Part shown: piece by piece, positions 18,508-25,591 of the stretch
Numbering within the stretch: position 1 is the first letter of the stretch
Layout: the number at the start of each line of letters is the position of its first letter
DNA from: an uncultured Lentisphaeria bacterium
GTDB lineage: Bacteria; Verrucomicrobiota; Lentisphaeria; Victivallales; Victivallaceae
Direction: 5' to 3'
Assembly (NCBI GenBank): GCA_903831825.1
Contig: CAIKZE010000250.1
Coordinates: 1-33,511 of the forward strand
Length of the DNA: 33,511 nt
Notes under the pieces: model-generated
What the model was told of the DNA's origin: nothing
Databases searched by the model: none
Seen by the model: the letters and a program-made list of their open reading frames with translations, nothing else
Program-made: the position numbers and the translations under genes

Positions 18508-21500
18508 ATGCCGGAAGACTTTACTATACAAAAAACACGCCTGAACGAACTGGAAAAGCGGGTTTCGGAACTGCTGCTCCGGGACCGGCACGCCGCCGTT
18601 CCGCATATAACCCGGATCAAGCAGTGCATTCATGCCGGACAGCCGGTTGACCGGATGCTGGACAATCTGGAAAAATCCATCGTCGATTGTGAACGTTTCG
18701 TGCTGAAACCGGTCGCCGGACGCATCAACTATCTGTTCCCGGACAATCTGCCGATAACAAACCACGTGGAGAGTATCCGCGAGGCGCTTCGGGGCCATCA
18801 GGCGGTGATTGTCTGCGGCACGACCGGTTCGGGAAAAACCACCCAGTTGCCGAAGATCGCGCTGGCAATCGGGCAAGGCCGGTACGGACGCATCGGCTGC
18901 ACCCAGCCGCGCCGGCTGGCGGCGACCGCCATGGCCCGCCGCGTGGCGTCCGAACTGAACGTTCAGTGCGGACGGGAAGTAGGGTATCAGGTCAGGTTTG
19001 ACAACCGCACCGGCGCCGATACGGTCATCAAATTCATGACTGACGGCATTTTGCTGGCCGAAACGCAGAACGACGGCAATCTGCTCCAATATGACACTTT
19101 GATTATTGACGAAGCCCATGAACGCAGTTTGAACATTGATTTCATTCTCGGCTACCTGAAAAATCTGCTTACCAAACGCCGCGACCTGAAAATCGTCATT
19201 TCTTCGGCGACGCTCGACGCGGAAAATTTTTCCAGGTTTTTCAACAACGCCCCGATCATTACGGTTGAAGGCCGCACCTATCCGGTGGAGGATTTCTTTC
19301 TGCCGCCGGAGGAGGACGAAGATCTGTACGCTCATATCGGGCGCGCGGTCAGGTGGATTTCAGAGATTGACCGCCGGGGCGATATCCTGGTTTTTCTGCC
19401 GGGAGAGCGCGAGATCCGCGAAACCGCCGATTTGCTGCACGGCTGGAATCTGCCCCACACGGAAGTGCTGCCGCTGTTTGCCCGCCTCAGCATGAGCGAC
19501 CAGCAGCGGGTGTTTTCGCCGGGGCATCTCCGGCGCATTATCCTGGCGACCAATGTTGCGGAAACTTCCATTACGATTCCCGGCATTCATTACGTGATTG
19601 ATTCCGGTTTTGTCCGCCTGAGCCGGTTCAATCCGCGAAATCAGATTCAGGAATTGCAGGTTGAGCAGGTTTCCCAGGCCAGCGCCAGGCAGCGCCGGGG
19701 CCGCTGCGGCCGTATTGCTGACGGCATCTGCGTTTACCTGTATGAAAAAGAGAGACTGGAAGCCAGCCAGCCGTACACCGATCCGGAAATCCGCCGCACT
19801 TGTCTTGCCGGCGTCATTCTGCAGATGGCGACGCTCGGTCTGCCGCCGATTGAGCGTTTTCCGTTTCTCGACGCGCCGCAGCCGGCGCTGATCCGGGAAG
19901 GCTACCGCACTTTGCGGGACATCGGCGCGATTGACGATGCCGGGCGGATAACCCGCGAAGGCCGCCAGATCGCCGCGCTGCCGCTCGACCCCAGACTGGC
20001 GAAGACGATCTGCTATGCCAGAAGCTGCAAAGTGCTGCCGGAAATCATGGTCATCAGCGCATTTCTCAGCATTCAGGATCCGCGTGAACGGCCTTCCGAC
20101 CAGCAGCAGGCGGCGGATCAGGCGCATCTCCAGTGGCGCGATGAAAACTCTGACTTTATCTCCATTCTCAAACTCTGGAATTTCATCCAGAAGGAAGCTG
20201 CCGCAATATCCAACAGCGCGCTGCACAAACTCTGCCGCCGCAACTTTTTGAATTACAACCGTGTCCGGGAATGGAAGAATCTATACCTCGACCTCTGCGA
20301 AGCGGTATCGGATGAGGAATGGGGCGTTTCCACCGCGGCGGGAATCGCGCAGGATGAATTCAATTACGACATGATCCATAAAGCGCTGCTGTCCGGAATT
20401 CCCGGCAATATCGGCATGTATGACCGCGAAGAACAGATATTTATCGCCGCCGGAAACCGCAAATTCTATATTTTCCCCGGTTCCGGGCTGTTCAAAAGGA
20501 AACCCGTTCCGCCGTGGGTGATGACGTTCGCGCTGGTCAGCACCGCTAAAGTTTTTGCCCGCCAGGTGGCGGTCATTAAACCGGAATGGATTGAAGAAGT
20601 CGCGCCGCATCTCTGCACCAGGATTTACGAGAATGCGGCATGGGATAAAGCCGCCGGATTTGTTTTCGCCAGGGAGAAAGTCATCTTCGGCGGGTTGCTG
20701 ATAAACGCCGGACGGCGGGTTCACTACGGCAAAGTCTGTCCGGCCGAGGCCCGCGTCGTTTTCATCCGCGAGGCAGTGGTTTCCGGAGAAATCAATTCAT
20801 CCGGCAAATGGCTGAAAAATCATTTGCGGATGCTGGAGACAATCAATACGCTGGAAGAGAAAATCCGCCGTCCCGGCACACTGCTGGATACGGAGGCGAT
20901 CTTTGAGCATTTCAACCGGGTGCTGCCGCCGCAGGCGTGTTCCGCCAAAAGTCTGGAACTGTGGCTTCAGGAAAACGGCGCCGAAATCAATATGCAAATG
21001 GCGGACGCCATGCAGGAACAGTTTACGCCGCTCCATCCGGAAGATTTTCCGGACGAACTTTCTTTTTCCGGCCATCTGTTTGAGTTGAAATACCGTTTTT
21101 CGCCGGGTGAGCCGGACGACGGCATCTGCATTCTGTCCGCCGCGGACGAAATGAACCTGATTCCCGCCTGGGGGCTGGAATGGCTGGTGCCGGGGCGGTT
21201 GGCGGAGAAGGTTGAACTGCTGATCAAATCCCTGCCCAAAACCCAGCGCATGCAATGCAGTCCCGTTGCGGAAACCGCGGCGGATTTTGCGGAGAACGTC
21301 CGCGATAATAAAATATCCCGCGAACAAGGTCTGACCGATGCGCTGGCGGCATATCTCAGCCGCACTTTCGGCGGAGATTTCCATCCCAAAGATTTCGACG
21401 CCGGGCGGCTGCCGGATTATCTGTCCATGAAGATCGCGGAAACCGACGGCGGCGGCAAAATCCTGGCGCTGCATCATGAAGTTCCGGCGGAACTGGCTTC

Positions 21501-22401
21501 CGGTTCCAAACTCAGCGCCGCCGTTAAAGGCGTCGGCAAATGGATACTTTCCGGCTGCACCGGATGGCCCGACGGCGATATGCCGGAATCCATTCAACTG
21601 CCCGGCGAAGAAGAACTGAAGGCGTTCCCGGCACTGACCGATGAAGACGGCGGTTTCATCGGCCGCCAGGTGTTTCTGGATCCGCGCGAAGCGGAATATT
21701 CTCACCGTCGCGGCCTGATCCGGCTGTTCCGCAATGCTCATGCCGGACAGCTTAAACTGATGAAAAAGTATTTTCAGTTCCCGTCGCAGATACAACTCTG
21801 CTGTTGCGTGAATGACCGGGCCGGGCGTTATCCGGATGACTTCGCCGATGCGGTGATCCTGGCGGCGCTGACGGCGGAGAATACGATTGACATCCGTTCG
21901 CAAAAAGTTTATCAGGAACGTGCGGAAGCCGCGCTGCCCGGACTGGTTAATTTTGCGGAAAAACGCGTTGCCATGCTGGAGCAGATGGCTGAACAGTGTG
22001 ACCGCATCCATGAGTTGCTGAAAAAATCCGGCGGGCGGGCGCATGAAAATTGCGCCGACGCCATGGCTCAACTGGATTTCATGTTTCATTCCGGATTTTT
22101 GCGCGGCGAAACCGTCTGGACCCGTTACCCGCGTTACCTTAAAGCGCTGTCCATTCGCGCCGAACGCATTCACAGTTCCCCGCAGAAAGATCTGGAAAAA
22201 ATGGAGCCGCTGCAGCCGTTTGCCGCCCGTTTTGAACTGGCGGCCGGAACCGTAAAAGATTTTGAACTGGCTTTCGATCTGAAAGAATTCTGGCTGCTGC
22301 TGGAGGAATTCCGCATCATGCAGTTTGCTCCGGAAGTTCGTCCGCTGGAAAAAGTCTCGGTCCCGCGTCTCCAGGAAACCTGGAACCGTCTGCGCCTGTG
22401 A
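18508..22401 (+). CDS. hrpA: ATP-dependent RNA helicase HrpA (DEAH box)
   Basis: A 1297-residue DEAH-box helicase matching full-length HrpA (about 1300). The E. coli protein rescues stalled ribosomes and acts in mRNA processing. In order: an N-terminal helical region (1-85), Walker A GTTGSGKTT (104-112), DEAH (201-204), SAT in ISSATLDAENF, then motif V NVAETSITIPGI and motif VI QRRGRCGR. The HA2/OB region follows, and the long C-terminal domain found in bacterial HrpA fills residues after about 600. ATG 18508 has only an AAGAAG-like upstream sequence. Long open frames on its minus strand are composition shadows. Confidence 0.95.
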   Translation: MPEDFTIQKTRLNELEKRVSELLLRDRHAAVPHITRIKQCIHAGQPVDRMLDNLEKSIVDCERFVLKPVAGRINYLFPDNLPITNHVESIREALRGHQAVIVCGTTGSGKTTQLPKIALAIGQGRYGRIGCTQPRRLAATAMARRVASELNVQCGREVGYQVRFDNRTGADTVIKFMTDGILLAETQNDGNLLQYDTLIIDEAHERSLNIDFILGYLKNLLTKRRDLKIVISSATLDAENFSRFFNNAPIITVEGRTYPVEDFFLPPEEDEDLYAHIGRAVRWISEIDRRGDILVFLPGEREIRETADLLHGWNLPHTEVLPLFARLSMSDQQRVFSPGHLRRIILATNVAETSITIPGIHYVIDSGFVRLSRFNPRNQIQELQVEQVSQASARQRRGRCGRIADGICVYLYEKERLEASQPYTDPEIRRTCLAGVILQMATLGLPPIERFPFLDAPQPALIREGYRTLRDIGAIDDAGRITREGRQIAALPLDPRLAKTICYARSCKVLPEIMVISAFLSIQDPRERPSDQQQAADQAHLQWRDENSDFISILKLWNFIQKEAAAISNSALHKLCRRNFLNYNRVREWKNLYLDLCEAVSDEEWGVSTAAGIAQDEFNYDMIHKALLSGIPGNIGMYDREEQIFIAAGNRKFYIFPGSGLFKRKPVPPWVMTFALVSTAKVFARQVAVIKPEWIEEVAPHLCTRIYENAAWDKAAGFVFAREKVIFGGLLINAGRRVHYGKVCPAEARVVFIREAVVSGEINSSGKWLKNHLRMLETINTLEEKIRRPGTLLDTEAIFEHFNRVLPPQACSAKSLELWLQENGAEINMQMADAMQEQFTPLHPEDFPDELSFSGHLFELKYRFSPGEPDDGICILSAADEMNLIPAWGLEWLVPGRLAEKVELLIKSLPKTQRMQCSPVAETAADFAENVRDNKISREQGLTDALAAYLSRTFGGDFHPKDFDAGRLPDYLSMKIAETDGGGKILALHHEVPAELASGSKLSAAVKGVGKWILSGCTGWPDGDMPESIQLPGEEELKAFPALTDEDGGFIGRQVFLDPREAEYSHRRGLIRLFRNAHAGQLKLMKKYFQFPSQIQLCCCVNDRAGRYPDDFADAVILAALTAENTIDIRSQKVYQERAEAALPGLVNFAEKRVAMLEQMAEQCDRIHELLKKSGGRAHENCADAMAQLDFMFHSGFLRGETVWTRYPRYLKALSIRAERIHSSPQKDLEKMEPLQPFAARFELAAGTVKDFELAFDLKEFWLLLEEFRIMQFAPEVRPLEKVSVPRLQETWNRLRL

Positions 22402-22565: not shown

Positions 22566-23657
22566 ATGTTATACTGGCTTTCTGATTTGAGTAATTATTT
22601 CGGCCCCTTCCGCCTTTTCGAATATGTTACATTCCGAGCCGCCGGAGCCGCATTCACCGCAATGCTGCTGGCGGCGCTGCTGGGACCTTTCACGGTGAGA
22701 AAACTTAAACAGTTGCGGGCTACCGCGCCGTGCCGGCTGGAAGGCCTGGTTGACAAAGCGTTTATCGACCGCAATAAAGACAAGACGCCCAGCATGGGCG
22801 GCCTGCTGATAGTTTTTTCCATCATCGTGTCTTCACTGTTGTGGAATATCATCACCAATCCGATCACCCTCACTCTGCTGGTGGTGATGGTGCTGTTTGC
22901 GGCAATCGGTTTTATCGATGATTTTGCCAAGGTGAGATTTGGCAAGCGGGACGGGATTCCGGGGAAAATGAAACTTCTGCTGCAATTCTTTTTCGCCGTC
23001 GGCGCGATTATGTTTCTGGACTGTATTCCCGAAACCCGTGACTTGCTGCATCAGTTGATGCTGCCTTTTCTCAAACAGCCGGTGCTGATAAGCGGCTGGG
23101 TCATGGCGCTCGGCGCTTTCGTGGTGGTTGGTTCCTCCAATGCGGTAAATCTGACCGACGGCAAAGACGGGCTGGCGGTGGGATGCTGTATTTTCTGCGC
23201 GCTGACGTATGCGGTTTTCGCGTATCTGTGCGGACATAAGATATTCGCCGCTTACTTGAGCATTCCGTTTATTCCCGGCGTCAGCGAAGCGGTGGTATTC
23301 GCGGCGGCGCTGGCGGGGGCCTGCATCGGCTTCCTGTGGCACAACTGTCATCCGGCGTCGATGTTCATGGGCGATACCGGCAGTCTGTCGCTGGGCGGAA
23401 CCATCGGACTGATTGCGGTAATGGTCAAACAGGAACTGATTCTGGTTGTGGTCGGCGGCGTGTTTGTCATGGAAGCCGCTTCCGTTATCATACAGGTTAC
23501 CAGCTTCAAACTTACCGGCAAACGGGTATTCCTCTGCACCCCGATCCATCATCACTTTGAGCAGAAGGGGTGGACTGAGACCCAGATTGTCGTACGCTTC
23601 TGGATTCTTGCCGGGATTCTGGCGCTGGCCGGACTGGCGACGCTGAAACTGCGCTGA
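22566..23657 (+). CDS. mraY: Phospho-MurNAc-pentapeptide transferase MraY
   Basis: Transfers phospho-MurNAc-pentapeptide from UDP to undecaprenyl phosphate, giving lipid I in the inner membrane. It has 363 residues and about ten membrane segments. Conserved blocks are KTPSMGGLLI (73-82), the magnesium-binding FIDDFAKV (116-123), SNAVNLTDGKDGLAVG (191-206), NCHPASMFMGDTGSLSLGG (260-278, with D270) and TPIHHHFEQKGW (325-336). It is isolated from ftsW/murG by 16 kb, although the product would feed MurG. It is 164 bp downstream of hrpA in an AT-rich gap that probably holds its own promoter. The start is ATG 22566; no strong Shine-Dalgarno is visible. Confidence 0.96.
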   Translation: MLYWLSDLSNYFGPFRLFEYVTFRAAGAAFTAMLLAALLGPFTVRKLKQLRATAPCRLEGLVDKAFIDRNKDKTPSMGGLLIVFSIIVSSLLWNIITNPITLTLLVVMVLFAAIGFIDDFAKVRFGKRDGIPGKMKLLLQFFFAVGAIMFLDCIPETRDLLHQLMLPFLKQPVLISGWVMALGAFVVVGSSNAVNLTDGKDGLAVGCCIFCALTYAVFAYLCGHKIFAAYLSIPFIPGVSEAVVFAAALAGACIGFLWHNCHPASMFMGDTGSLSLGGTIGLIAVMVKQELILVVVGGVFVMEAASVIIQVTSFKLTGKRVFLCTPIHHHFEQKGWTETQIVVRFWILAGILALAGLATLKLR

Positions 23658-23683: not shown

Positions 23684-24499
23684 ATGAAAATCATGATTAT
23701 GACTGATATGGAAGGCTGTGCCGGGATTCTCAATCACGATGATTGGGTTACGCCTGAAGGCAGATATTACGAAAAAGGCCAGCGGTTCCTGACCGGAGAG
23801 GTCAATGCCGCCGTCGCCGGCTTTTTTGAAGCCGGGGCAACCGAAGTAGTGATAATCGACGGCCACGGTTACGGCGGAATCGACCCGGAACTACTGGACG
23901 AAAGGGCATCGCTGAGCAGGGGAGCTCCCAAGCCGGTCTGGCCGTGGGGACTGGATAAAACTTTCGCCGGCATGGCTTTTGTCGGGCAGCATGCCAAAGC
24001 CGGCACTCCTTATTCGCATATTACCCACACCGGCTGGTTTAACTGCATTGACACGACCGTTAACGGCATTTCAATCGGTGAATACGGCAACATGGCGCTG
24101 TGCGCGATGGAGCTGGGCATCCCGACCATTCTGGCCTGCGGGGAACAGGCTTTAGCGGCGGAAGCCGCGGCGCTTACTCCCGGCGTTGTCACTGTCAGCG
24201 TCAAGCACGGCACCCTGCCGGACGGCCTGGACGCGCTGGACTGCGACTCCTACCGCAACGCCAAACTCAGCGCGGTTCACCTGTCGCCGCTGAAAGCCCG
24301 GAAAATGATTAAAGAGGGTGCGTTCAATGCATTGCTGAAGCTCAAGCATGAGCCGAAAGCTTTTTCCTATCCCAAACTGACGCCGCCGTATGTGCTGGAA
24401 ATAAAATTACGGGCTGACGGCGACAAACCAGCCTATAGCCGCCGGTATGAACATCCAGACAGCATCATCTGGCTGTTGAATCTGCAATGTGAAGCATAG
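23684..24499 (+). CDS. M55-family D-aminopeptidase (DppA-like)
   Basis: A zinc peptidase of the DppA family; the B. subtilis member removes N-terminal D-amino acids such as D-Ala from D-Ala-peptides. It has 271 residues, the usual length. Zinc-ligand candidates match the family pattern: D8 and E10 (TDMEG), H61 (IIDGHGYGG), H103 (VGQHAKAG) and E133 (IGEYGNMA). There is no signal peptide, so it should be cytoplasmic. A strong AAAGGAG precedes ATG 23684, 26 bp after mraY, so co-transcription is likely. This pairs peptidoglycan precursor synthesis with turnover of D-amino-acid peptides. A broader peptidase role is possible. Confidence 0.88.
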   Translation: MKIMIMTDMEGCAGILNHDDWVTPEGRYYEKGQRFLTGEVNAAVAGFFEAGATEVVIIDGHGYGGIDPELLDERASLSRGAPKPVWPWGLDKTFAGMAFVGQHAKAGTPYSHITHTGWFNCIDTTVNGISIGEYGNMALCAMELGIPTILACGEQALAAEAAALTPGVVTVSVKHGTLPDGLDALDCDSYRNAKLSAVHLSPLKARKMIKEGAFNALLKLKHEPKAFSYPKLTPPYVLEIKLRADGDKPAYSRRYEHPDSIIWLLNLQCEA

Positions 24500-24565: not shown

Positions 24566-25591
24566 ATGATTCGATGCAGATCAAGATTTTTATATGTGAT
24601 GCTGATTTTTTCGGCAATTTCATTATCCTGCCTGTCATTATATGCCGCGATGTACTGCAGCGTCTGCAAAAAGCAGATCAAAGGCAGTTATTTAAAATAC
24701 GGCGATAAGATATTCTGCAGCCAGAGTTGTCTGGATAAGACACTTCCCAAGTGTGCCATTTGCGGCAAAACCTGCAATGGCGGTTTCCAGAAGGACGGGA
24801 AATACTACTGTTCCAAGGCATGCCTGGAGAAGACTATGCCCAAATGCGCGCTTTGCGGCAAGCCGTTCAGCTCGGGAATGCTTTTCAGCACCAACGGCAA
24901 AGATGGTCCGGTTTACTGCGCGGAATGTGCGAAAAAGCCGAAGTGCTTTGCTTGCTGCCTGCCTAATGATTGCGAGCAATTGAGCGATGGCAGGTATATC
25001 TGCCGGAATTGCAAAGCAAGCGCGGTATTTAACGAAGAAATGGCTTTGCAGATTTTCAATGATGTCAGAAAACGGATGTATGAAGACCTTGGATATTCGA
25101 CGCCGCATGATATCGAATTCTATGCGACAGATGCTAAAAACCTTGAGTCAAAGTCGAAAAGCTATTCTCCAGGCCAGGAACTTGGTTTATATGTCTGCAA
25201 TTTTACCATGAACACCGTGACTAAGACTAAGGTCGGCTGGAATTTAAAAACCGAAGAAAAGACTGAGCAATATAAGAGCAATGAGAAATTTACGGTGTAT
25301 GTCCTGTATGGACTGCCGCGAAAGAAACTGATTGAAGTCTGCGGACATGAACTGGCCCACGACTGGATGCAGGAAAATTTTCCCAAAACTCAGGATATTA
25401 AACTGAAGGAAGGCTGGGCTGAATACATCGCGACCAGGATCAATGATCTTTTCGGACAGTCGGAAATGAACAAGCGCATGGAGGAGAATCAGGATAAAAT
25501 CTACGGCGACGGCTACCGGATGGTCAAAGATTTCGTCAGGCAGAACGGCATCGAGAACATCGGCCAGTTATTCCGACAGCATGAGGGGTGA
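24566..25591 (+). CDS. Secreted treble-clef (LIM-like) zinc protein with DA1-like HExxH metallopeptidase domain
   Basis: A 341-residue protein. An N-terminal signal-like segment (about 1-27, ending SLYAA) is followed by consecutive zinc-binding modules. Two near-repeats of C-x2-C...YC-x3-C-LxKTxPKC type cover about 31-63 and 64-94, then CALCGK...YCAEC (95-121) and CFACC...YICRNC (127-149). The C-terminal domain (about 155-341) carries HELAH (261-265) and a downstream KEGWAEY (281-287) whose Glu is the expected third zinc ligand. The combination and the spacing from HExxH to EG match plant DA1 peptidases (LIM plus HEMMH). Bacterial LIM-metallopeptidase proteins have been described by comparative genomics. 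The substrate is unknown. The 3' end overlaps the next, convergent gene by 24 bp. Confidence 0.85.
   Translation: MIRCRSRFLYVMLIFSAISLSCLSLYAAMYCSVCKKQIKGSYLKYGDKIFCSQSCLDKTLPKCAICGKTCNGGFQKDGKYYCSKACLEKTMPKCALCGKPFSSGMLFSTNGKDGPVYCAECAKKPKCFACCLPNDCEQLSDGRYICRNCKASAVFNEEMALQIFNDVRKRMYEDLGYSTPHDIEFYATDAKNLESKSKSYSPGQELGLYVCNFTMNTVTKTKVGWNLKTEEKTEQYKSNEKFTVYVLYGLPRKKLIEVCGHELAHDWMQENFPKTQDIKLKEGWAEYIATRINDLFGQSEMNKRMEENQDKIYGDGYRMVKDFVRQNGIENIGQLFRQHEG

What the first reader, a model, noticed from the sequence alone, without database searches (positions are those of the whole stretch)
24566..25591. Bacterial secreted DA1-like protein: tandem LIM/treble-clef fingers plus HExxH peptidase
Plant DA1 is a ubiquitin-activated peptidase with LIM domains. 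This protein combines several Cys-rich fingers, two of which are near repeats, with HELAH and an EGWAEY third-ligand segment. Here it carries an export signal, so a ubiquitin link is unlikely and it may act in the periplasm or outside the cell. Finger-rich exported metallopeptidases are little studied.
Basis: partly seen in the sequence, partly recalled or inferred. Interest (0 to 1): 0.7.

Follow-up and report, generated by a model that had tools for sequence, protein, structure and literature searches.

The report
Exported bacterial DA1-like zinc peptidase
A bacterial gene that is widespread in one group of bacteria encodes an exported relative of the plant growth-control protease DA1, with a variable row of zinc fingers in front of the enzyme; its substrates are unknown, and it is a new exported variant of a known protein family.

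Summary
ORF 24566-25591 (+, 341 aa) has a signal peptide, four Cys4 fingers and HELAH-x16-E (H261, E262, H265, E282). Fingers 1 and 2 are near repeats (15/32 identical; 0 of 1000 shuffles as good). It passes Pfam's cut-off for DA1-like PF12315 (36.3 vs 25 bits). It does not match the LIM family, but a confident model (pLDDT 91.7) resembles tandem LIM domains.

It belongs to an exported family found in 112 of 198 Lentisphaeria genomes searched (a few are fragments or partial hits), with members in two families outside the class. Of 76 members, 75 have export-type N-termini; the exception is a cytosolic canonical LIM-DA1. Finger number varies from 2 to 5; the last finger and catalytic residues stay fixed. 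In one outside family, 7 of 8 signals carry twin arginines, suggesting export after folding. DsbB and VKOR are absent from 59 class genomes, so zinc-Cys fingers could plausibly persist in the periplasm.

Best reading: an exported gluzincin endopeptidase, the last finger part of the catalytic unit, the others binding modules. Substrate, zinc loading and activity are inferred. Bacterial DA1 relatives were already known (PMC5322733); the exported finger-repeat branch looks new. New variant of a known kind, moderate interest.

The parts
24566..25591 (+). Whole gene: exported DA1-like metallopeptidase, 341 aa
24566..24646 (+). Signal peptide (residues 1-27, Sec type; cleavage near LYA|A, shortly before the first zinc-ligand Cys)
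   Evidence: Hydrophobic core after +3 charge; export-type N-terminus in 75 of 76 family members; fastest-evolving part of the gene
24656..24730 (+). Finger 1 (C31,C34,C51,C55)
   Evidence: sequence; beta-hairpin plus short helix in the model
24752..24823 (+). Finger 2 (C63,C66,C82,C86), near repeat of finger 1
   Evidence: 15/32 identical, 0 of 1000 shuffles as good
24845..24928 (+). Finger 3 (C94,C97,C118,C121)
   Evidence: C118 invariant and C94, C97, C121 nearly so in 37 relatives
24944..25012 (+). Finger 4 (C127,C130,C146,C149 with LSDGRYIC), the DA1-type last finger
   Evidence: All four Cys invariant in 37 relatives including the cytosolic LIM-DA1 L055
25019..25588 (+). Peptidase domain (residues 152-341)
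   Evidence: PF12315 match; model of this domain alone pLDDT 94.0, pTM 0.87
25346..25360 (+). HELAH zinc site and catalytic Glu (H261,E262,H265)
   Evidence: invariant
25409..25426 (+). EGWAEY third-ligand segment (E282), 16 residues after HELAH
   Evidence: E282 invariant; spacing 15-19 across 76 members
25502..25519 (+). YGDGYR C-terminal motif (Y313,G314,G316,R318)
   Evidence: invariant in 37 relatives; present in 74 of 76 members

Best explanation
The gene makes an exported zinc endopeptidase of the DA1-like family (gluzincin, clan MA type). It leaves the cytoplasm by the Sec route and works in the periplasm or outside the cell. The catalytic zinc is held by H261, H265 and E282, with E262 as the catalytic base. 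The last finger (C127-C149) is part of the catalytic unit. The preceding one to four repeat fingers form a short zinc-stabilised arm that binds and positions substrate proteins. Shown here: family membership, conserved catalytic residues, export-type N-termini, variable finger number, purifying selection. Inferred: zinc loading, peptidase activity, the arm's role, and an envelope protein as substrate.
For: PF12315 36.3 bits, cut-off 25; Peptidase_M1 second at E 4.8e-5, below its own cut-off. All 37 members of A1 match PF12315 at E <= 0.1. H261, E262, H265, E282 and the YGxGxR motif are invariant. Profile search finds aminopeptidase N sequences over the HExxH...E segment and LIM proteins over the finger segment. 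Confident model with the finger region matching LIM4-5 of PINCH1. Export-type N-termini in 75 of 76 members. Fingers vary from 2 to 5 while the last one is fixed. In plant DA1 a C274Y change in the LIM-like domain abolished peptidase activity (PMC5322733), so the last finger is probably needed for catalysis. dN/dS 0.11-0.17. No DsbB or VKOR in 59 class genomes, so thiol-zinc fingers could survive in the periplasm. Twin-Arg signals in 7 of 8 members of one outside family, all of whose genomes hold TatC, suggest export after folding there.
Against: No activity, zinc content or localisation has been measured. Gene order is not conserved, so no partner or substrate is suggested. The peptidase-domain model has no convincing match among solved structures: best peptidase 3o0y, TM 0.35, E 0.22. 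Many outside-class members do not match PF12315 even at E 0.1.
Confidence: 0.62

Rival explanations
1. The fingers are not zinc sites in the mature protein. Their CxxC pairs form disulfides after export, giving a rigid disulfide-rich arm on an extracellular protease.
For: The compartment is outside the cytoplasm, and CxxC pairs can form disulfides. The window protein has 21 Cys in its mature part.
Against: DsbB and VKOR are absent from 59 class genomes. The model adopts treble-clef hairpins that match zinc-bound LIM domains. A twin-Arg signal in one branch suggests export after folding.
Confidence: 0.15
2. It is mainly a metal sensor or zinc-handling protein: the finger arm gains or loses zinc and switches the peptidase on or off.
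For: Finger motif FCSxxC resembles FCS/TRASH-type fingers, with weak Pfam hits to zf-FCS and TRASH. Finger number varies.
Against: The zf-FCS hit of the window protein is below its cut-off. No gene family other than ptsH-ptsI, mraY and a few clade-specific ones recurs beside it; neighbours were not all annotated.
Confidence: 0.12
3. It is a cell-wall maturation enzyme, because mraY and an M55 D-aminopeptidase lie just upstream.
For: MraY-type gene (22566-23657) and M55 gene (23684-24499) precede it on the same strand. mraY precedes it in four relatives, two of the same genus and two of another genus.
Against: mraY linkage covers only one small corner of the tree, whereas other lineages have ptsH-ptsI or unrelated neighbours. 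The M55 gene is not found beside it in L037 or L039.
Confidence: 0.08
4. It is a cytosolic DA1-type regulator whose apparent signal is a chance hydrophobic start.
For: Plant DA1 and the L055 relative act or lie in the cytosol.
Against: Export-type N-termini in 75 of 76 members, with the first finger starting shortly after the predicted cleavage site.
Confidence: 0.03

Closest known systems
Plant DA1 / DAR peptidases (PF12315), ubiquitin-activated
   Same: Treble-clef fingers before a HExxH...E gluzincin domain; PF12315 match over cut-off; HExxH-x16-E spacing fits HEMMHx15EE as printed for DA1 if the second Glu is the ligand
   Different: Signal peptide, no UIM reported, no canonical LIM, 2-5 repeat fingers, bacterial, no known ubiquitin involvement
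Bacterial cytosolic LIM-DA1 proteins (Roseiflexus, Burroughs 2011 as cited in PMC5322733; L055 here)
   Same: DA1-like peptidase; in L055 the last finger and the YGxGxR motif are shared
   Different: L055 has true LIM domains (71 bits) and no signal peptide; joined to the exported family only by a very long branch
M1 aminopeptidases (aminopeptidase N)
   Same: HExxH...E gluzincin site, weak profile similarity
   Different: Below the M1 cut-off; HExxH-x16-E here against x18 in M1 (own knowledge)
LIM domains of PINCH1 (7d2t)
   Same: Tandem treble-clef arrangement by fold search
   Different: Four-Cys units with 7-residue spacers between fingers 1-2 and 2-3; not recognised by Pfam LIM

Membership tests
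DA1-like peptidase (PF12315) | Profile score above Pfam's curated cut-off | tested here: met
   36.3 bits vs 25; all 37 A1 members match at E <= 0.1
DA1-like peptidase (PF12315) | HExxH with a downstream Glu about 16 residues on | tested here: met
   H261, E262, H265, E282 invariant; x16 in the window, 15-19 in the family
DA1-like peptidase (PF12315) | LIM-like Cys finger just before the peptidase | tested here: met
   C127, C130, C146, C149 invariant, also in cytosolic L055
DA1-like peptidase (PF12315) | Peptidase activity | not testable with these tools
   needs enzyme assay
Plant DA1 (ubiquitin-activated) | Ubiquitin-interacting motifs | tested here: not met
   no UIM reported among Pfam hits up to E 10, with the caveat that HMMER's filters drop most weak matches
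Plant DA1 (ubiquitin-activated) | Intracellular location | tested here: not met
   conserved export-type N-terminus; location itself not measured
LIM domain (PF00412) | Profile match | tested here: not met
   not reported for the window protein at E <= 10; matched by 7 of 37 relatives at E <= 0.1, over the cut-off in L055
LIM domain (PF00412) | Tandem treble-clef fold | tested here: met
   model matches PINCH1 LIM4-5, E 3.7e-4, probability 1.00, but TM 0.39 by target length and rmsd 8.6, so the finger-to-finger arrangement differs
Peptidase family M1 | Profile score above cut-off | tested here: not met
   23.5 vs 27.7 bits
Gluzincin (clan MA type) | HExxH and Glu ligand brought together on two helices | tested here: inconclusive
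   HELAH lies in helix 252-271 and E282 in helix 278-295 of a confident model, but distances could not be measured and fold search gave no significant peptidase match

The most novel reading that the evidence does not exclude
A broad bacterial branch of DA1-type peptidases moved outside the cytoplasm and uses a modular array of zinc fingers, with repeats gained and lost, as a substrate-reading arm in the envelope; in one branch it is exported already folded and zinc-loaded by the Tat route.
Probability: 0.35. Interest if true: 0.68.

Novelty: new variant of a known kind. Interest (0 to 1): 0.48.

Why it matters
[quoted passage not shown] A small, exported bacterial relative that needs no ubiquitin could give a structure and a clean test of what each finger does. 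Exported zinc-finger arrays are also unusual, and this family is common in Lentisphaeria, where envelope proteolysis is little studied.

Tried and rejected
Phage or plasmid origin: no match in plasmids or phages and no relative in viral contigs. Plasmid search with the cytosolic relative L055 also found nothing. Conserved operon: none; ptsH-ptsI is divergent from the gene in about 10 loci and mraY lies upstream in a few, otherwise neighbours differ. Lipoprotein reading: the residue before the first finger Cys varies widely, so no lipobox is conserved there. Viral structure library: no match at E <= 0.001. Burroughs 2011 (PMC5938088) is not held, so what it says about exported forms could not be read.

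Full report
What is there. The ORF at 24566-25591 encodes 341 aa. The window is contig C250 of a 5.9 Mb genome. Two same-genus copies come from MAGs titled uncultured Lentisphaeria bacterium. The protein starts with a Sec-type signal. Four Cys4 fingers and a peptidase domain follow. Cys pairs are 31/34-51/55, 63/66-82/86, 94/97-118/121 and 127/130-146/149; HELAH is at 261-265 and the third ligand is Glu282. Fingers 1 and 2 are near repeats: score 88 against a best of 27 in 1000 shuffles. The gene is under purifying selection (dN/dS 0.11 and 0.17 against the two same-genus copies), with the peptidase part the most constrained and the signal the least.

Family. Pfam puts it in DA1-like PF12315 (36.3 bits, cut-off 25), with Peptidase_M1 second and below cut-off; no LIM or UIM match is reported at E <= 10. 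NCBIfam has no model for it. All 37 relatives first aligned match PF12315 at E <= 0.1. Invariant residues are C118, C127, C130, C146, C149, H261, E262, H265, E282, G283, Y313, G314, G316 and R318. One relative, L055, is a cytosolic protein with true LIM domains (71 bits) and the same peptidase, and its genome also holds an exported member.

Distribution. A profile of the family finds matches in 112 of 198 genomes of the class; a few of these are fragments or finger-only or peptidase-only hits. Full-length members also occur in two families outside the class, f30 and f34. PF12315 alone found 30 of 289 genomes in the phylum, so the Pfam model misses many. Of 76 members with a complete motif, 75 have an export-type N-terminus; the exception is L055. 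A simple script flagged 72: L057 and L118 were missed because their signals contain a CxxC, and L109 because its twin-Arg signal is less hydrophobic; their sequences are. Finger number by motif count is 2 (5 proteins), 3 (12), 4 (58) or 5 (1), so repeats have been gained and lost; simple counting is approximate. Some f4 genomes carry a tandem pair of long and short copies.

Export and zinc. In family f30, seven of eight members have a twin-arginine N-terminus, such as FSRRIF or TRRIF, and TatC is present in all 13 genomes checked. This suggests, but does not show, export after folding. DsbB and VKOR, the usual partners for periplasmic disulfide formation, are absent from 59 of 59 class genomes while the controls ring. 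Together these make zinc-bound fingers outside the cytoplasm plausible. Other thiol oxidation routes were not tested.

Structure. AlphaFold2 on the 37-member alignment gave pLDDT 91.7 and pTM 0.77. The finger region matches PINCH1 LIM4-5 (E 3.7e-4), with a low TM-score because successive fingers are arranged differently. The peptidase domain folded alone is confident (pLDDT 94.0, pTM 0.87), but no solved structure matches it well; the best peptidase, 3o0y, has TM 0.35 and E 0.22.

Context. No operon is conserved. In the window an MraY-type gene (22566-23657) and an M55 D-aminopeptidase (23684-24499) precede the gene. mraY is also upstream in L037, L038, L039 and L054; M55 is present in L038 and not found in L037 or L039. 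In about ten loci from several families of the order the gene is divergent from ptsH-ptsI, named here from their sequences (L069 judged by its overlap only). These look like inherited positions; each of the two groups needs two changes on the tree.

Known work. Arabidopsis DA1 is a ubiquitin-activated peptidase with a LIM, a LIM-like domain and HEMMHx15EE; a C274Y change in the LIM-like domain removed peptidase activity; relatives in Roseiflexus were noted, citing Burroughs 2011 (PMC5322733). DA1 family peptidases cleave the receptor kinase TMK1 near its membrane domain (PMC9546594). I found no paper in the held library on an exported branch, but the Burroughs paper could not be read.

Mechanism. 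Most likely an exported zinc endopeptidase in which the last finger is part of the catalytic unit and the earlier repeat fingers bind substrate. The first part rests on conserved residues and on the C274Y result in plant DA1; the second on the variable number of repeats against a constant core. The substrate is unknown; an envelope protein is a guess from location.

Verdict. It is a new variant of a known kind.

Noticed in passing
L123:3525-5576 (G194:C4, minus strand): A 683-aa protein with about nine tandem fingers of the same type, no HExxH and no signal peptide, followed by a C-terminal half that I read as possibly nuclease-like and ending in an Ala/Ser-rich hydrophobic stretch; no Pfam match at E <= 0.001. 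The same finger unit appears on an unrelated protein.
   Followed up: partly
L055:931-2016: Cytosolic canonical LIM-DA1 in a bacterium of the same class, whose genome also carries an exported member (L122).
   Followed up: yes
L063, L067, L068: Tandem duplicate DA1-like genes, one long with four fingers and one short with two, in several genomes of family f4.
   Followed up: partly
L102-L104, L106-L110: Outside-class family f30: DA1-like members with twin-arginine (Tat-like) signals in 7 of 8 and a conserved neighbourhood with efflux-type genes on the opposite strand.
   Followed up: partly
Class-wide, 59 genomes: DsbB and VKOR are absent from all 59 Lentisphaeria genomes tested, so disulfide formation outside the cytoplasm may be absent or use another route.
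   Followed up: partly
L040, L043, L046-L049, L066, L134, L139 (and L069): DA1-like gene divergent from ptsH-ptsI across several families of the order.
   Followed up: partly
window 18508-22401: HrpA-type helicase with a DUF3418 C-terminus, ordinary.
   Followed up: no
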